Program-made: the position numbers and the translations under genes
NCBI GenBank assembly: GCA_002783205.1
Contig: PFEY01000101.1
Location: 14,101-70,159 of the forward strand
Source: Rhodobacteraceae bacterium CG17_big_fil_post_rev_8_21_14_2_50_63_15
GTDB taxonomy: Bacteria; Pseudomonadota; Alphaproteobacteria; Rhodobacterales; Rhodobacteraceae
Length of the DNA stretch: 56,059 bases
Direction of reading: 5' to 3'
The notes under the pieces: generated by a model
Databases searched by the model: none
The model's input: the letters and a program-made list of their open reading frames with translations, nothing else
Told to the model about the DNA's origin: nothing
In this document: one piece after another, positions 8,991 to 24,165 of the stretch
How positions within the stretch are numbered: position 1 is the first letter of the stretch
Layout of the letters: every line of letters begins with the position of its first letter

Positions 8991-9005
8991 TTAAGAGCCG
9001 GGTAA
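8991..9005 (+). promoter_or_regulatory. CtrA-like box upstream of motB
   Basis: TTAAGAGCCGGGTAA has the form TTAA-N7-GTAA, one mismatch from the CtrA consensus TTAA-N7-TTAA. It lies 48 bases before the likely motB ATG. It is one of seven such boxes in flagellar promoter gaps of this window. Confidence 0.5.
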
Positions 9006-9053
9006 TCCCCGCCATGATAGCCGTGAAACTGGGTGAGATTGAAGGTGGTGAAA

Positions 9054-9917
9054 ATGGACGCGCGTAGCAATACGACGCCGGTCATCATCAAACGGAAAAA
9101 GGTCACTGGCGGCGGCGGTCATCATGGCGGTGCCTGGAAAGTGGCATACGCCGACTTCGTTACCGCCATGATGGCATTTTTCCTGCTGATGTGGCTCTTG
9201 GGTGCGACAACAGAACAACAACGCAAGGGGATCGCCGATTATTTCAGCCCGACTTTGCCTATCAGCCGGATTTCTGGCGGCGGCGATGGAGCCTTCGGCG
9301 GCGACACCATGTTTTCAGAGGATGCCCTACCGCAGAATGGCACCGGAGCCACGGACCTGTACACGACAGAAAGCAGACAGGCACGGGGCGAGATGGGCCT
9401 CACGCTCGACGACACTCAAACCGCCACGACGCAGAAAGATGCCAACAGCTTTGCCACCATCGAGGACGCCCTGCTGGCCTTGAAGGGTGACAGTATGGTG
9501 GCAGATGAAATGCTCCGCCATATCCTCACCAAAGTAACCGATGAAGGATTGGTGATCGAGATTTCCGATCTCGAGGGCGCAGAAATGTTCGCCGCGCAGA
9601 CGTCAGAAGCAACACCTCTGCTTCAGGACATCGCGGCATTGATCGCAAATGTCAGCGATCTCGTTGAGAACGACATCGCTCTGGCCGGGCATATCCGCGC
9701 CCAACCGATAACACTTGCGCGCAACCCGGTCTGGGATCTCTCTATGGCGCGCGCCAATCAGATACGTCTTTTGCTGGAAAACGCCGGTGTGAATCGAAAG
9801 AGGATGCGCCGCGTCACGGGGCACGCTGACAAATCACCCGTGACGCGCGATCCGATGGCGCTGCGAAACAACCGTCTGGAAGTGATCTTGCTGCGATCAG
9901 ATTCCCGCAGGAAATAG
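9054..9917 (+). CDS. motB: Flagellar stator protein MotB
   Basis: A 287-residue stator subunit with one transmembrane helix and a C-terminal OmpA-like peptidoglycan-binding domain. From the ATG at 9054 the segment HHGGAWKVAYADFVTAMMAF places the proton-conducting aspartate at D34. The helix runs to about residue 52. The OmpA-like core includes RANQIRLLLENAGV and GHADKSP. GTG codons at 9033, 9045 and 9048 are alternative in-frame starts, but the ATG with GAAGGTGG upstream gives the normal N-terminus. motA lies 11 kb away in another operon, so the stator genes are split. Confidence 0.92.
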   Translation: MDARSNTTPVIIKRKKVTGGGGHHGGAWKVAYADFVTAMMAFFLLMWLLGATTEQQRKGIADYFSPTLPISRISGGGDGAFGGDTMFSEDALPQNGTGATDLYTTESRQARGEMGLTLDDTQTATTQKDANSFATIEDALLALKGDSMVADEMLRHILTKVTDEGLVIEISDLEGAEMFAAQTSEATPLLQDIAALIANVSDLVENDIALAGHIRAQPITLARNPVWDLSMARANQIRLLLENAGVNRKRMRRVTGHADKSPVTRDPMALRNNRLEVILLRSDSRRK

Positions 9918-9932
9918 ATCAAATTCTAACTG

Positions 9933-9947
9933 TTAGTCGTCCGTTAA
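9933..9947 (+). promoter_or_regulatory. CtrA-like box upstream of flgE
   Basis: TTAGTCGTCCGTTAA (TTAG-N7-TTAA) lies 56 bases before the flgE start and overlaps a CTAAC-T-GTTAG dyad at 9926-9936. It probably drives flgE-flgK-flgL-flgI. Confidence 0.55.
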
Positions 9948-18439: not shown

Positions 18440-18454
18440 TTAACAATCGGTTAG
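18440..18454. promoter_or_regulatory. CtrA-like box between divergent fliF and fliL
   Basis: TTAACAATCGGTTAG is TTAA-N7-TTAG, one mismatch from consensus, and also fits the extended form TTAAC-N5-GTTA. It lies 61 bases from the fliF TTG and 46 bases from the fliL ATG and could serve both directions. Confidence 0.6.
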
Positions 18455-18500: not shown

Positions 18501-19007
18501 ATGTCAGGGACAGATGTCACCGTCGAGCCACCTACAAAAAAGACCTTTGGTCGATCCTTGATTCTCGGTCTTGTGCTGGCTCTCCTGGGTGCAGCCGGAG
18601 GCTTCTATGGCGTCCAGTCTGACCTTTTACCCATTGGAAATAAATATAAATCAGATGAGTCTGGCGCGCCCCCGGCCACCGCGGGGAACTCTGTCGGAAC
18701 CCTGCCGGATCTGGCGTTTGTTCCCCTCGAACCGCTGATTGTATCAATGGGCCAAGGAAGTCAGATGCGTCACCTCCGATTCCGTGGCGAACTCGAAGTG
18801 ATCCCGCGCCACAAGGCAGAAGTCGAAAGGCTGCTGCCGCGTGTTGTCGATGTGCTCAACACCTATCTGCGGGCCCTCAGAATCGAGGATATCGAGGACA
18901 GCTCAGGTCTCATGCGTCTTCGCGCTCAGATGTTGCGCAGAGTGCAGATCGTGACGGGCGCAGACCGCATCAACGATCTGCTGATCATGGAATTCGTTAT
19001 AAACTGA
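18501..19007 (+). CDS. fliL: Flagellar basal-body protein FliL
   Basis: A 168-residue single-span membrane protein. A cytoplasmic N-terminus is followed by a helix at about residues 19-36 (ILGLVLALLGAAGGFYGV) and a periplasmic domain. The C-terminal INDLLIMEFVIN is the classic FliL ending. The ATG at 18501 has GGAGAAA upstream and replaces a longer frame starting at 18468. FliL works with the stator; here motE and motA follow. A second, more distant FliL-like protein is encoded at 28552-29058. Confidence 0.88.
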   Translation: MSGTDVTVEPPTKKTFGRSLILGLVLALLGAAGGFYGVQSDLLPIGNKYKSDESGAPPATAGNSVGTLPDLAFVPLEPLIVSMGQGSQMRHLRFRGELEVIPRHKAEVERLLPRVVDVLNTYLRALRIEDIEDSSGLMRLRAQMLRRVQIVTGADRINDLLIMEFVIN

Positions 19008-19019
19008 AGGAAGAGCTTG

Positions 19020-19409
19020 ATGGAAATGATTGCAGATATCCTGCTTGTGGCCGGAGCGATCGGTGCCGGGTTCTACTGTTTCATACTCGCCCGGCGGCTG
19101 GGGCGGTTCAACGATCTGGAAAGCGGTGTCGGCGGAGCAGTTGCGGTCCTGTCCGCGCAGGTGGACGATCTGACGCAAACCCTGCGCGCCGCACAGACGA
19201 CGGCGAGCGAATCGACGGTCTCACTCGATCACCTGACGGAACGCGCCGAGCATGTTGCCCGACGGCTCGAATTGCTTGTGGCGTCGATGCATGATCTGCC
19301 GGAAGCAACCTGTGATCACAAGCCAGAGCAGCATGACAGGATGCAGGACATCACCATGACGCCGATGTTCAAGCGACATCAGGACATGCTTGGAGGATCA
19401 GCAGGATGA
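19020..19409 (+). CDS. Uncharacterised flagellar-cluster membrane protein, N-terminal helix plus coiled coil
   Basis: A 129-residue protein with one N-terminal transmembrane helix (residues 4-23, ADILLVAGAIGAGFYCFILA). A helical, coiled-coil-like stretch follows (LSAQVDDLTQTLRAAQTTA and LTERAEHVARRLELLV). It sits between fliL and motE and overlaps motE by 4 bases. The pattern recalls the alphaproteobacterial DUF6468 proteins found in flagellar clusters, but I am not sure of that assignment. Function is unknown; the context suggests a stator or export accessory. Confidence 0.75.
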   Translation: MEMIADILLVAGAIGAGFYCFILARRLGRFNDLESGVGGAVAVLSAQVDDLTQTLRAAQTTASESTVSLDHLTERAEHVARRLELLVASMHDLPEATCDHKPEQHDRMQDITMTPMFKRHQDMLGGSAG

Positions 19410-20011
19410 GCATCCCCACGGTTCGCTCAAAACCCAAACCGCGTGGGGCAAGACGGGGAACCTTGTTCATGATCTCCGGGCTTCTGCTGGCCTCGGCGCT
19501 GATCAGGTTTGGCGATGGGGCAGGGCAGGCGTTTGCGCTTGCCATGGGTGACGGCACAACAACCGCGCCGGATGAAACCACCAACAAAACTTGCACGACG
19601 CCTGAGGATTTCCAGACCATGCTGACGGAATTTCAGGAACGCGATTCCCGGCTCATGGTGCAGGAAAAGGCGCTACGAGACCGAATGCAGGCATTGCGGA
19701 TCACCGATCAGGAGGTCAGCCGCAAACTCGAGGCCCTGACGCGCGCAGAGGACGCGTTGCGCCAGATGATCGCACTCGCCGAGACCGCCTCCGAAGATGA
19801 CCTGAGCCGCCTGACCAAGGTCTATGAAAACATGAAACCGAAACAGGCCGCTGCCCTCTTCGAGGAAATGGACCCCAGCTTTGCCGCCGGGTTTCTGGCT
19901 CGTATGCGACCCGAGTCCGCCGCTGCGCTCATGGCAGGTCTGAGCCCGCAGGCAGCTCATACGTTCAGCGTCATTCTGGCCGGGCGAAATGCAAATGCAC
20001 CTGTCGAATAA
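19406..20011 (+). CDS. motE: MotE-type protein with MgtE-N-like domain
   Basis: A 201-residue protein. Residues about 19-40 form a hydrophobic signal anchor. A coiled-coil region covers roughly 75-125 (LMVQEKALRDRMQALRITDQE). The C-terminal MgtE-N-like repeats include YENMKPKQAAALFEEMDPSFAA and LARMRPESAAALMAGL. In Sinorhizobium meliloti MotE is a periplasmic chaperone for motility protein MotC. Here it precedes motA, and a large secreted protein follows motA, a possible client. The assignment rests on domain layout and context. Confidence 0.8.
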   Translation: MSIPTVRSKPKPRGARRGTLFMISGLLLASALIRFGDGAGQAFALAMGDGTTTAPDETTNKTCTTPEDFQTMLTEFQERDSRLMVQEKALRDRMQALRITDQEVSRKLEALTRAEDALRQMIALAETASEDDLSRLTKVYENMKPKQAAALFEEMDPSFAAGFLARMRPESAAALMAGLSPQAAHTFSVILAGRNANAPVE

Positions 20012-20082: not shown

Positions 20083-20952
20083 ATGTTTGGCATTCTTGGC
20101 ATTGCGGTCATTTTCATCATGGTGTTCGGCGGTTATCTGGCGGCTGGCGGCAAGATCGGGATCATTCTGCATTCCCTTCCATTCGAACTGATGATGATCG
20201 GCGGTGCCGCAATCGGGGCATTCCTGATCGGTAATGACGGTCCCGCGATCAAGCATACGATAAGGGATGTCGGCAAGGTCTTCAAAGGTGCGAAATGGAA
20301 ACCTGACGATTACCGCGATCTTCTATGCCTGCTGTTCGAGCTCATCCGCCTTGGTCGCCAGAACCCGGTTGCGATCGAAGAACATATCGAGGAACCTGAG
20401 GCGTCCTCGATCTTTGGAAAATACCCGAAGATCCTCGCCGACAAGGAAGCAATTGCGCTGATCAGCGACACATTGCGGGCCGCTTCGATGAACTATGACG
20501 ATCCCCATCAGGTCGAGGAAGTGCTCGAAAAACGGATGGAAGCGAGCCAGCATCATGCGCTTCATTCTAGCCACGCCTTGCAAACCATGGCTGACGGTCT
20601 GCCCGCGCTCGGGATTGTCGCTGCCGTTCTGGGGGTGATCAAGACCATGGCGTCGATTGACCAGCCTCCCGAGATCCTTGGCAAGATGATCGGTGGGGCC
20701 CTTGTCGGAACCTTTCTCGGGGTTTTTCTATCCTACGGGTTGGTCGGACCTTTTGCCGCCAAGGTCAAGGATGTGGTCGATGAGGATGCCCATTTCTACA
20801 CGCTGATCCGTGAGGTGCTGGTCGCAAATCTGCACAACCATACCGCCAACATCTGCATCGAAGTAGGACGGCAAAACGCTCCGCTGCACAATCGCCCGAG
20901 TTTCAACGATCTCGAAACCGCACTCAAGAGCTTGAGACAGGATGCAGCATGA
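20083..20952 (+). CDS. motA: Flagellar stator protein MotA
   Basis: A 289-residue inner-membrane stator subunit. Helices lie near residues 2-20 and 28-46, with a large cytoplasmic loop that should contact FliG. The last two helices follow: DGLPALGIVAAVLGVIKTM near 167-185 and GGALVGTFLGVFLSYGLVGP near 205-224. A ribosome binding site GGAG precedes the ATG. It overlaps the next gene by 4 bases, tying the stator to the large secreted protein. Confidence 0.95.
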   Translation: MFGILGIAVIFIMVFGGYLAAGGKIGIILHSLPFELMMIGGAAIGAFLIGNDGPAIKHTIRDVGKVFKGAKWKPDDYRDLLCLLFELIRLGRQNPVAIEEHIEEPEASSIFGKYPKILADKEAIALISDTLRAASMNYDDPHQVEEVLEKRMEASQHHALHSSHALQTMADGLPALGIVAAVLGVIKTMASIDQPPEILGKMIGGALVGTFLGVFLSYGLVGPFAAKVKDVVDEDAHFYTLIREVLVANLHNHTANICIEVGRQNAPLHNRPSFNDLETALKSLRQDAA

Positions 20953-23255
20953 TCAAACGCGTTGTAGTGGCCCCGTTCCTTTGTCTGCTTGCCCAGATTG
21001 CGGCCGCCCAGACGGTCCAAATTCGATCGGGCGAGCACGATAGCTTCACACGGCTGGTGATGACGCTGCCTGCTCGCACGCAAGTGCGGTCCGAGCCAAG
21101 AGCGCATGGTGTATCCTTGATTTTCGCGGCACCCGGTCTTGTGTTCGACACCACTCAGGTCTTTGAGCGGATTACCCGCACCCGCCTTTCCGATATCACA
21201 TCTTCCACGGGAGAGGCCCGTCTTGACCTCAGTTTTGCCTGCGATTGTGGCCTCAACACGTTCTGGAATGACCGCAACATGCTGGTGATCGACATCATGG
21301 CAGATCCGGAGCAGAACCGCACCGGGACACAACGACCACGACCGCGGCCTCTGTCTCTCTCTGGGAGTGGAATCGAACATGCCGATGTGAGAAATCACGC
21401 CTCGCCCGCGTCAAAACTCCTGGCGCCGCCGTTGGACGCGGGTTTCCTGCATGCGCCAGACCCATTCGGGAAACCATCGCGCCCCGGTGATCCTTACAGA
21501 CCCTTTGCGCCCAAAGACATCGATCTTGCGGAAATGCAGTCGACTCTGACCCGCCAACTCGGCGATGCGGCCAGTCGTGGCTTCCTGACACCCAATCCCA
21601 GAAGACGGCCAGGCCCCGACAGACCGAAAGGTGTTGCCACGACGTCTCCATCCGAAACGCAGCGTGCGCGCACAGAAATGCCTCCTGCACCGAACCGTCC
21701 GAGACATCACAACATCCGTGTGCGGTCGGCATTTCTCGACGAAAACGCTTCGCAAATCAGGACCGTTCTGGAATCGAACAAGGACGAGGTCTGCGTTCCT
21801 GATAACTGGATCGACATTGTCGCCTGGGGACAAGAGACGCCATTCGAGACCCAGGTCGGCCCGCTCATTGGCGACTTGCTAGGTGAGTTCGACGTGATCA
21901 GCCAAAACAAGGCTATTCGACTCGCCCAACTGTATCTCTATTTCGGGCTCGGTCTTGAGGCTCGTCAAATACTGAGCCTGGTCAACCAGGATAACAGGCA
22001 GGCGGAGGTCATGAACGAACTTGCCCAGATCCTCGACGAGGGGCAGGCGGAGAACGGATCACTCTTGAGAACCCAGATCGACTGCGATACGCCGGCCGCG
22101 CTCTGGAGCCTGCTGAGCCATGACAGGTTGCCCGATGACCTCATCTTCGATCATCAGCTGATCCAGCGCAGTTTCGTCGCTCTGCCGGACCACCTTCGCA
22201 AACACCTCGGCCCGATTCTGGCGCGAAGGCTCATTGCGGCGGGTCACAGGGTGACGGCTGACGGAATTTTGCGCGCAATCGATCGGAGCAATCAAGCGAC
22301 ACCACCCGCCACAACACTGGCTCTGGCTGAGTTGGCGCAGAACAAGGGACAGACAGAAATCGCCGAAGCCGGTTTCCAGGCAGCGATCGACAGCAACACA
22401 GCGACCTCTGCGGAGGCTACGATCGAACTCATCGAGCAGTGGCTCGCAACTGGTCAACCGGTCCCCTTCGATCGCGCAGAACTTGCAGGCGCCTTTGCCC
22501 AGGAACATCGCGGCACTTCGCTCGGCCGTCGCATGGCGCTGACCTATGTCGAAGCCCTCGCAGCTTCGGGCGCTTTTGAACAGGCATTTTCCGAGTATGA
22601 CCGGATACGACCGGATCTCCCAAAAGAGGATGAAGTCATCCTTGGAAATCGCCTGGTCAAGCATTTGACCGCGACCGCAAGTGATCTGGATTTTCTGCGT
22701 TACACGCTCTCGGCCCGCGCTGGAAGATCCCAGAATCTCGCACCAGAGGTCGCCCTCTCTGTCAGTCAAAGATTACTGGAAGCCGGGTTTGCAGAGGCGG
22801 CAGAGACCTATCTAAAAGAACCGGAATCTGGCCCGGATGGGCGGAAACAACGTCTGTTGCGCGCAGATATAGCGCTGGCGTTGAACCGCCCGCGACAGGC
22901 CACAGTCGCGGTGCAGAACATCGAGGGCGCCGATGCCGAATCACGGCGTGGCAAGGCGCAAAGCCTCTCAGGTGAGTATGATTCGGCTTTTGAACACTTT
23001 GCCGCCGCCGGCGATTCGACAGCAATGCATGACGCCGCCTGGATGGCCGCCGACTGGTCCAAGATGCAGGAAGCAGAGGATCAGGTGCTGCGCGAGGTTG
23101 CCGACCTCATGCTTTCAACGGACCCATCCTCAAGCCAGTCGGAACCCGGGATGCTCACCGCAACGCGACTCCTGCTGGATGAGAGCATGCACGCGCGACA
23201 GACATTCGGGCGGTTATTGGACGAAATGCAGATGCCAGAGATACCCGAAGGCTAG
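20949..23255 (+). CDS. Large secreted protein, N-terminal AMIN-like domain plus helical repeats, coupled to motA
   Basis: A 768-residue protein with signal peptide VAPFLCLLAQIAAA. Residues about 21-118 form a beta-rich segment resembling AMIN domains (GEHDSFTRLVMTLP and ERITRTRLSDI), which target cell-wall proteins. A Pro/Arg-rich linker of about 120 residues follows. From about 250 on, the chain is helical with TPR/SEL-like repeats (ALAELAQNKGQTEIAEAGFQ). Its start overlaps motA by 4 bases. It is too long for a normal flagellar part, and I know no named counterpart. A periplasmic stator-support role, analogous to MotC, is inference. Confidence 0.8.
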   Translation: MIKRVVVAPFLCLLAQIAAAQTVQIRSGEHDSFTRLVMTLPARTQVRSEPRAHGVSLIFAAPGLVFDTTQVFERITRTRLSDITSSTGEARLDLSFACDCGLNTFWNDRNMLVIDIMADPEQNRTGTQRPRPRPLSLSGSGIEHADVRNHASPASKLLAPPLDAGFLHAPDPFGKPSRPGDPYRPFAPKDIDLAEMQSTLTRQLGDAASRGFLTPNPRRRPGPDRPKGVATTSPSETQRARTEMPPAPNRPRHHNIRVRSAFLDENASQIRTVLESNKDEVCVPDNWIDIVAWGQETPFETQVGPLIGDLLGEFDVISQNKAIRLAQLYLYFGLGLEARQILSLVNQDNRQAEVMNELAQILDEGQAENGSLLRTQIDCDTPAALWSLLSHDRLPDDLIFDHQLIQRSFVALPDHLRKHLGPILARRLIAAGHRVTADGILRAIDRSNQATPPATTLALAELAQNKGQTEIAEAGFQAAIDSNTATSAEATIELIEQWLATGQPVPFDRAELAGAFAQEHRGTSLGRRMALTYVEALAASGAFEQAFSEYDRIRPDLPKEDEVILGNRLVKHLTATASDLDFLRYTLSARAGRSQNLAPEVALSVSQRLLEAGFAEAAETYLKEPESGPDGRKQRLLRADIALALNRPRQATVAVQNIEGADAESRRGKAQSLSGEYDSAFEHFAAAGDSTAMHDAAWMAADWSKMQEAEDQVLREVADLMLSTDPSSSQSEPGMLTATRLLLDESMHARQTFGRLLDEMQMPEIPEG

Positions 23256-23346: not shown

Positions 23347-24165
23347 TTGACGCGGATCCTCTCGTTCCGTTTGACACGCCATCTGGATTGTCACGATGTC
23401 AGCATCCGCCCTGCCAGGGTACGATCTGTAAGAACCGCCGCCGCGACACGCGGGCTGATCAGGATCGGTATCGTGTTTCTGCTGTCATGTTCCGTCTTTT
23501 TGCCGTGCGCGGTCACTGCATCGCCCGCCCTGATGTGTGACGCAGCAGCTCGCCTAGCTGCGGCACAACTTGACCTGCCGCCATCCATTCTTCGCTCTAT
23601 CACACGAACGGAAACGGGCCGCGCGCGCGGTGACAAGCTTGAGCCCTGGCCCTGGACCGTAAACATGGAGGGTAAGGGCCATTGGTTCGAGACTGAAAGT
23701 GCTGCGAAAGCCTTTGTTGAAAAAGAACTTAGACGTGGGGCCCGCAGCTTCGACGTGGGCTGCTTTCAGATCAATTACAAATGGCACGGCCATGCATTTC
23801 GGTCGATAGACCAGATGTTCGATCCCACTGAAAATGCGCTCTACGCCGCAACATATCTGGCCGATCTCTTTGCGGAAAGCGGTGATTGGTCCAAGGCGGC
23901 AGGGGCCTATCATTCGCGCACGCCCCAGAATGCCGAGAAGTATCGTGCGCGTTTTGACCGGATCCGGCAAAGCCTGAACGAACAGCCCGGCCCCCTCGCC
24001 GAACTCGCAAACCTCCGGGCCCCGCTACCGCAACGGGACAAACCCAACGGGTTTCCGTTCCTGCATCAGAGCGACGCCAAACGCAGCAATGGTTCACTGG
24101 TCCCGCTTGATCGCCTATCACGCGGCGCTCTGATCTCGCTTGGATCGACAATGAACGGATCCTGA
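23347..24165 (+). CDS. Flagellar-cluster lytic transglycosylase (SLT domain), TTG start
   Basis: A 272-residue secreted SLT-domain enzyme that opens peptidoglycan. The catalytic glutamate is in RSITRTETGRA, and the substrate-groove motif VGCFQINYKWHG follows. A hydrophobic signal segment GIVFLLSCSVFLPCAVTASP lies before the domain. No ATG or GTG suits the N-terminus; TTG at 23347 has AGGAG 6 bases upstream and is in frame. The single-domain FlgJ of this cluster lacks an enzymatic domain, so this protein probably supplies it, like SltF of Rhodobacter sphaeroides. Confidence 0.88.
   Translation: MTRILSFRLTRHLDCHDVSIRPARVRSVRTAAATRGLIRIGIVFLLSCSVFLPCAVTASPALMCDAAARLAAAQLDLPPSILRSITRTETGRARGDKLEPWPWTVNMEGKGHWFETESAAKAFVEKELRRGARSFDVGCFQINYKWHGHAFRSIDQMFDPTENALYAATYLADLFAESGDWSKAAGAYHSRTPQNAEKYRARFDRIRQSLNEQPGPLAELANLRAPLPQRDKPNGFPFLHQSDAKRSNGSLVPLDRLSRGALISLGSTMNGS

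What the first reader, a model, noticed from the sequence alone, without database searches (positions are those of the whole stretch)
20949..23255. Large secreted AMIN-like plus repeat protein translationally coupled to motA
A 768-residue secreted protein overlaps motA by 4 bases. It has an N-terminal beta domain resembling AMIN wall-targeting domains, a proline-rich linker and about 500 residues of helical repeats. No standard flagellar component has this architecture. Wall-binding plus repeat layouts (as in FimV) organise polar machinery. A periplasmic protein positioning the stators at the wall is a reasonable guess.
Basis: partly seen in the sequence, partly recalled or inferred. Interest (0 to 1): 0.7.

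Follow-up and report, generated by a model that had tools for sequence, protein, structure and literature searches.

The report
MotK-type spoke protein of flagellar motor
This flagellar gene cluster encodes a protein predicted to be periplasmic, with a predicted wall-binding-type (AMIN-like) domain and helical-repeat arm; it belongs with the already described motor protein MotK and likely ties the motor's periplasmic ring to the torque-generating stators at the cell wall.

Summary

Added here: (1) motA is directly upstream in 40 of 41 motK-bearing genomes of the family. (2) MotK is the short form of a class-wide family (mostly 850-1400 aa) co-linear over AMIN and TPR (hhalign 99%); among listed hits, motE lies within 10 kb upstream in 106 of 108 genomes with both on one contig (24 more have them on different contigs). 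(3) For MotK and one large relative, the best PDB match is the Campylobacter jejuni flagellar scaffold (9hmf_K, probably PflA), so a spoke from the MotE ring to stator and wall is the likely mechanism. (4) Elsewhere in the class the gene often follows an orphan pair of MotB-like genes, one lacking the proton-carrying Asp; two literature searches showed no report.

The parts
20949..23255 (+). motK-type gene, 768 aa
   Evidence: gene order as published for C. sphaeroides fla2 (PMC10954123)
20949..20952 (+). ATGA overlap of motA stop and motK start (predicted translational coupling)
   Evidence: possible start at -4 in 28 of 34 loci
20949..21008 (+). putative Sec signal peptide, residues 1-20
   Evidence: sequence inspection; helix 3-17 in the model; no predictor run
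21006..21302 (+). AMIN-fold domain, residues 20-118
21240..21248 (+). C98-x-C100 in the AMIN domain
   Evidence: each Cys in 47 of 49 sequences of A2
21303..21788 (+). Pro-rich, mostly disordered linker with three predicted helices, residues 119-280
21789..23114 (+). TPR-type superhelix, residues 281-722
21792..21794 (+). C282, invariant; possible disulphide partner of C379 (inferred)
   Evidence: 49 of 49
22083..22085 (+). C379, invariant
   Evidence: 49 of 49
23151..23225 (+). C-terminal helix, residues 735-759
20083..20952 (+). motA
   Evidence: Pfam MotA_N 9.5e-36 and MotA_ExbB 1.2e-13
19406..20011 (+). motE (MgtE_N-type C-terminus; single Cys, residue 63)
   Evidence: MgtE_N 6.8e-6; alignment with MotE of 22 other loci
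19017..19409 (+). pflI-type gene (weak DUF6468 match, below its cut-off)
   Evidence: position as published
18501..19007 (+). fliL (likely start ATG 18501; ORF listed from TTG 18468)
   Evidence: FliL 1.1e-12
18440..18454 (+). CtrA-like site TTAA-N7-TTAG between divergent fliF and fliL (suggestive only)
   Evidence: 4 such sites in the window against 2.08 expected, so not above chance by number
9033..9917 (+). motB, the stator partner, elsewhere in the cluster
   Evidence: MotB_plug 4.5e-20, OmpA 1.6e-7

Best explanation
By sequence family, gene order and predicted fold this is a MotK-type protein, which likely works as a periplasmic spoke that joins the MotE ring around the rotor to the MotA/MotB stators at the cell wall. 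Shown here: the overlap with motA and the conserved company of motE and stator genes; predicted with good confidence: the AMIN fold, the linker and the TPR superhelix. Shown by others in C. sphaeroides, not in this organism: MotK is periplasmic, is needed for rotation but not for filament assembly, binds MotE and MotB2, and needs MotA2/MotB2 to reach the flagellated pole. Inferred: the TPR arm docks on the MotE dimers (the E-ring), the AMIN domain on its flexible leash holds the wall next to MotB or MotB itself, and the assembled spoke recruits stators or keeps them in the active, wall-bound state. The overlap with motA would couple MotK synthesis to that of the stator.
For: Gene order fliL-pflI-motE-motA-motK equals the published fla2 operon. 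48 further homologues, mostly matched over the full length, 23-55% identical. AMIN fold. TPR superhelix. motA directly upstream in 40 of 41 motK genomes, a possible start at -4 in 28 of 34 loci. Class-wide relatives: hhalign AMIN 99.0%, TPR 99.4%; 18 of 20 single members score above eight other TPR ORFs of the own genome; motE upstream within 10 kb in 106 of 108 genomes with both listed hits on one contig. Both models give the C. jejuni flagellar periplasmic scaffold chain 9hmf_K as first PDB match, E 2.2e-6 and 1.3e-10. PflA, by published description, is an AMIN-like beta-sandwich + unstructured linker + TPR superhelix forming spokes. Published mutants of C. sphaeroides motK and Caulobacter CC_2058/fssB are both flagellated but do not rotate.
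Against: The C. sphaeroides MotK sequence itself (Q3IY86) was not found, so orthology rests on order and architecture. The 9hmf match has a low whole-chain TM-score (0.20) and is not among the 50 VIA-align rows of either model; that chain K is PflA is my inference from its length. The review says no cryo-ET has been done on the C. sphaeroides or S. meliloti motors, so spoke geometry is by analogy. The published work did not detect binding to FliL2, and I saw no test of peptidoglycan binding. Two of 20 class members (L085, L086) do not score above the TPR controls. motE and the large gene are on different contigs in 24 genomes, some of them in assemblies of few contigs, and in 12 named loci, ten of them Azospirillum, over 7 kb of upstream DNA holds no motE hit. 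One family genome (G023) keeps fliL-pflI-motE-motA-flhA without motK, and one (G039) has only a 348-aa copy, so the module is not indispensable everywhere.
Confidence: 0.78

Rival explanations
1. MotK is chiefly a stabiliser or chaperone of MotE (or of MotB) in the periplasm and is not itself a structural spoke.
For: In C. sphaeroides MotE is severely reduced without MotK; S. meliloti MotE was proposed as chaperone of MotC.
Against: MotK-sfGFP forms polar foci that co-localise with the hook and need MotA2/MotB2, and MotK binds MotB2 in vitro. MotB2 stability showed no evident change in the motK mutant. MotE-sfGFP still localises without MotK; whether that strain swims was not in the parts I read.
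Confidence: 0.12
2. The AMIN domain recruits or activates a wall hydrolase at the motor (for example the SLT transglycosylase encoded immediately downstream), so that MotK clears or remodels peptidoglycan for stators.
For: An SLT-domain gene lies between motK and flhA (23347-24165, SLT 1.8e-7); AMIN domains occur in amidases.
Against: motK mutants make filaments, and the published partners are MotE and MotB2, not a hydrolase. No interaction data.
Confidence: 0.06
3. It is a FimV-like polar organiser that positions flagellar or chemotaxis machinery.
Against: No LysM found by Pfam at E up to 1; published MotK localisation depends on MotA2/MotB2, and filaments form without it.
Confidence: 0.03

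Closest known systems
MotK of Cereibacter sphaeroides Fla2 (RSWS8N_12065, UniProt Q3IY86; PMC10954123)
   Same: Same operon order, AMIN-like N-domain, low-complexity linker, TPR-like region; the paper states that Roseobacteraceae carry homologues.
   Different: 652 aa there, 768 aa here (longer repeat part); there the C-terminus has a second disordered, proline-rich stretch, here it ends in a helix. Direct sequence comparison not done.
CC_2058 / FssB of Caulobacter crescentus (PMC7885107, PMC10954123, PMC13023049; passages)
   Same: Secreted TPR protein beside the motE homologue CC_2059; mutant flagellated but nonmotile; proposed distant MotK homologue.
   Different: No similarity to MotK in a BLAST search according to PMC10954123; not compared by me.
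PflA of Campylobacter jejuni (PMC11870540, PMC12222027; passages and one section; PDB 9hmf)
   Same: AMIN-type beta-sandwich, unstructured linker, TPR superhelix; spoke that meets the E-ring (FlgY, a MotE relative according to PMC13023049).
   Different: About 9% identity in the fold match; PflA binds PflB through its linker; whether a PflB counterpart exists here was not searched.
MotC of Sinorhizobium meliloti
   Same: Periplasmic TPR protein, partner of MotE.
   Different: No AMIN domain according to the review PMC13023049; not compared here.

Membership tests
MotK | N-terminal AMIN-like fold | tested here: met
MotK | TPR-type helical C-terminal region | tested here: met
   Pfam TPR_19 in 7 of 37 homologues though not in this protein
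MotK | Gene order fliL-pflI-motE-motA-motK | tested here: met
   motA upstream in 40 of 41 motK genomes
MotK | Sec signal peptide / periplasmic | tested here: inconclusive
   seen by eye and as helix 3-17 in the model; no predictor run
MotK | Sequence orthology to Q3IY86 | not tested
   none of the 52 proteins returned is 652 aa long or named Cereibacter/Rhodobacter sphaeroides
MotK | Required for rotation; binds MotE and MotB | not testable with these tools
   published for C. sphaeroides only
PflA-type spoke | AMIN beta-sandwich + linker + TPR superhelix | tested here: met
   against the description
PflA-type spoke | Encoded with an E-ring protein (MotE/FlgY type) | tested here: met
   window; class-wide 106 of 108 with both on one contig, 24 more on different contigs
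PflA-type spoke | Structural homology to PflA | tested here: inconclusive
   9hmf_K first in PDB (E 2.2e-6) but TM 0.20; not listed among the VIA rows
PflA-type spoke | Radial spoke position in the motor | not testable with these tools
   needs cryo-ET
FimV | LysM domain | tested here: not met
   no LysM at E up to 1 in Pfam; that FimV is defined by LysM is recalled

The most novel reading that the evidence does not exclude
MotK is the reduced Rhodobacterales remnant of an ancestral alphaproteobacterial stator-docking module: MotE hub, a multi-beta-domain AMIN-TPR spoke and an orphan, asymmetric pair of MotB-like proteins (one without the proton-carrying Asp, no MotA beside them) that forms an extra wall-anchored ring. 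In Rhodobacterales the pair and the extra beta domains were lost, and motA itself took the pair's place in the operon.
Probability: 0.3. Interest if true: 0.68.

Novelty: new member of a known kind. Interest (0 to 1): 0.4.

Why it matters
It places an unannotated 768-aa protein (no NCBIfam match at E up to 1, no significant Pfam match) in a recently described motor module and ties MotK by sequence profile, not only by fold, to a family with hits in 162 of 289 sampled class genomes. Together with MotE (155 of 289) this predicts E-ring-plus-spoke motors in much of the class, including culturable genera such as Azospirillum, and makes the question of how stators are held at the wall testable by domain deletion and cryo-ET. 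An ancient, widespread E-ring with PflA-like spokes has already been proposed (PMC11870540, PMC13023049), with MotK, MotC and CC_2058 used there as queries, so the distribution may partly be in their supplements, which I could not see. The protein itself is of a published kind.

Tried and rejected
Rejected: a novel flagellar component (published as MotK); FimV-type organiser (no LysM); generic TPR similarity as the reason for the link to the class-wide family (control: eight other TPR ORFs of the own genome give hhalign 0.2-27%, while 18 of 20 class members give over 50%; the two exceptions are L085 at 0.7% and L086 at 33.7%; MotE as a non-TPR control gives 0.1-1.2%); a random neighbour (linkage counts). 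MotK's AMIN does not align well with the second beta domain or the third of the class member (8.2% and 1.6%); only with the first.

Led nowhere: NCBIfam (no family); Pfam on the protein itself (only DUF6013 at 0.12); PDB sequence search with A2 (only weak repeat proteins); plasmids (one weak partial match); finding C. sphaeroides MotK by sequence. 9hmf does not appear in the 50 VIA-align rows of either model, nor 4bin in those of the second model. The MotK profile did not match the own genome's AMIN amidase L032. The CtrA-like site is not above chance by number. In a simple motif count without alignment, 7 of 77 first-type MotB-like ORFs seemed to show D; the alignment gave D in 1 of 77; I trust the alignment.

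Rows dropped: A1 used 37 of the 49 hits; A2 used all 49 (window sequence in place of P0001). A3 (MotE) has 23 rows; L070's MotE was left out because its start was uncertain. A4 is 20 large ORFs chosen from high-scoring hits for spread of families, so not a random sample (L070 runs off its contig). Profiles A3 and A4 were built largely from genomes that searches then searched. A5 used 42 of the 60 hits. In one search only listed rows were used: MotE 149 of 155 genomes, large family 141 of 162; of 132 with both, 24 had them on different contigs and 2 far apart on one contig.

Full report
OBSERVATION. ORF 20949-23255 (+) encodes 768 aa and overlaps motA (20083-20952) by four bases. The order in the window is fliL, a DUF6468/PflI-type gene, motE, motA, this ORF, an SLT-domain gene, flhA (flhA, and fliF divergent upstream, are named by recall from the translations, no scan was run on them). 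motB lies at 9033-9917.

WHAT IT IS. NCBIfam gives nothing and Pfam nothing significant. A protein search returned 49 hits including the window's own entry P0001; the other 48 are 23-55% identical in alignment A2. Those named by their sources are Roseovarius, Rhodovulum, Pelagimonas, Antarctobacter, Octadecabacter or unclassified Pseudomonadota; the order name Rhodobacterales used here is recalled from these genera. Scanning 37 of them singly at E up to 0.01, Pfam finds TPR_19 in 7 and AMIN-like (PF24837) in 3. A 2024 paper on C. sphaeroides describes this protein kind as MotK (PMC10954123; abstract, most of the introduction, two of three parts of the Results, and Discussion read): operon fliL2-pflI-motE-motA2-motK, AMIN-like N-domain, TPR-like rest, homologues in Roseobacteraceae; mutants are flagellated but paralysed; MotK is periplasmic, binds MotE and MotB2, and forms polar foci that need MotA2/MotB2.

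CONSERVATION IN THE FAMILY. In 61 genomes of the window's family (one per genus, own genome included), 41 have motK, 45 have MotA_N, and 40 of the 41 have MotA_N directly upstream; the exception, G040, has an in-frame stop in its motK match and no MotA_N hit. Five have MotA_N without motK: in two no motE or fliL lies in the 12 kb fetched (G006, G044), two are weak MotA matches (G027, G045), and one, G023, is a true exception: fliL-pflI-motE-motA-flhA with a short ORF in place of motK. G039 has a 348-aa copy that keeps AMIN but not the full repeat array. In 34 inspected loci a possible motK start lies at -4 in 28, -1 in 4, +3 in 1; one is unclear.

CLASS-WIDE FAMILY. Outside the family the profile hits mainly the N-terminal part of large ORFs. 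Twenty such loci, chosen from the high scorers, were fetched; motE was upstream on the same strand in 20 of 20. Pfam, on these 20 singly, finds TPR_16 in 13, AMIN-like in 12 and AMIN in 3. A profile of the 20 finds relatives in 162 of 289 class genomes, mostly in open frames of 850-1400 aa (the hits in the window's own family are MotK itself), and a MotE profile in 155 of 289. Among rows listed by both, 132 genomes have both; 108 have them on one contig, and in 106 of these they lie within 10 kb, all 106 with motE upstream on the same strand; 2 are far apart and 24 have them on different contigs, some in assemblies of few contigs and so truly apart. Profile-profile comparison gives 99.0% for MotK AMIN against the first AMIN of the large protein (97 columns) and 99.4% for the repeats (427 columns); the first and second beta domains of the large protein align at 98.8%, which suggests a tandem duplication. 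Control: eight other TPR ORFs from the own genome reach 0.2-27%, while 18 of 20 large proteins, taken singly, exceed 50% and two do not. The model of one (P0057, 988 aa, source name Minwuia sp.) shows by its secondary structure three beta domains, the first two separated by a disordered linker, and a solenoid. A scan of named genomes kept 80 loci of 367 relatives; the MotK profile hits 79 of 80, and motE is upstream in 52 of 80. Of the other 28, 16 have under 3 kb of upstream DNA; 12, ten of them Azospirillum, have over 7 kb without a motE hit.

LINK TO PFLA. The best PDB match of both models is 9hmf chain K, the C. jejuni periplasmic scaffold (E 2.2e-6; 1.3e-10), at about 9% identity and low whole-chain TM (0.20-0.25); VIA-align does not list it. 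Published descriptions of PflA (passages of PMC12222027; a section and passages of PMC11870540) give the same layout and a spoke role; that chain K is PflA I infer from its length of 773 (PflA without residues 1-15; total length recalled). The review PMC13023049 (passages) already proposes MotK, MotC and CC_2058 as PflA-like partners of E-ring proteins. Caulobacter CC_2058 is fssB, whose deletion gives flagellated nonmotile cells and loss of stator-dependent surface signalling (passages of PMC7885107).

MECHANISM. Most likely a spoke: MotE ring, TPR arm, flexible linker, AMIN at the wall beside MotB. Shown or well predicted: architecture, linkage, gene overlap. Published in a relative: paralysis, periplasmic location, MotE and MotB2 binding. 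Inferred: which end touches what, wall binding, and the effect on stator recruitment. MotE here has a single Cys (residue 63), as C. sphaeroides MotE has; MotK itself has conserved Cys pairs (98/100 in 47 of 49, 282/379 in 49 of 49), which suggest disulphides, untested.

SIDE FINDING. Directly upstream of the large gene, outside the window's family, there is often a pair of MotB-like genes (13 of 20 and 63 of 80 loci, sets that share at least three loci; the commonest junction with the large gene is again a 4-base overlap, 7 of 13 and 30 of 63). The second type has the proton-carrying Asp in 79 of 80 aligned ORFs; the first lacks it in 75 of 77 (S 56, G 15, A 4; one D, one gap). Many of these loci are from Azospirillum, so the counts are not independent. 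Of four pairs scanned with Pfam, the four second-type members match MotB_plug clearly, the first-type ones weakly (three) or not at all (one). Of sixteen class genomes checked, 14 have at least one MotB_plug match in the module (11 have two; not G219 and G097); all 16 have a MotA_N gene, none within 10 kb of the module by the listed coordinates, and in 13 a MotB_plug match lies beside that MotA_N (not in G088, G234, G330). My searches (three papers, 10 of 65 listed; listings only, open-access papers only) showed no paper on such a pair.

VERDICT.

Noticed in passing
L069:3228-4588; L082:4310-5733; L088:3522-5239; 76 of 100 loci (at least three loci counted in both sets): An orphan pair of MotB-like genes lies directly before the large AMIN-TPR gene in many class members outside the window's family; the first lacks the proton-carrying Asp in 75 of 77 ORFs, the second keeps it in 79 of 80, and no MotA gene was found beside them.
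   Followed up: partly
window 21240-21248, 21792-21794, 22083-22085: The four Cys of the mature protein form two conserved sets (C98/C100, each in 47 of 49; C282/C379 in 49 of 49), possible disulphides.
   Followed up: partly
L066:5219-6265 and L064:5629-6330: Natural variants: a 348-aa MotK with AMIN but no full TPR array (G039), and a fliL-pflI-motE-motA-flhA cluster in which a short ORF replaces motK (G023).
   Followed up: partly
window 23347-24165: A lytic transglycosylase (SLT) gene, probably with a TTG start, sits between motK and flhA; possible wall-opening enzyme of this flagellum.
   Followed up: no
L061:1495-2685 (-): A 396-aa protein with a MotK-like AMIN domain at its C-terminus, low-complexity rest and no Pfam family at E up to 0.001.
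   Followed up: no
window 8991-9005, 9933-9947, 18440-18454: Three of four one-mismatch TTAA-N7-TTAA (CtrA-like) sites lie in intergenic gaps of the flagellar cluster (before motB, between motB and a flgE-type gene, between fliF and fliL); the number alone is not above chance.
   Followed up: partly
L082:3620-4306, L073:4952-5641: A CheZ-family gene lies between motE and the MotB-like pair or the large gene in these two clusters.
   Followed up: no
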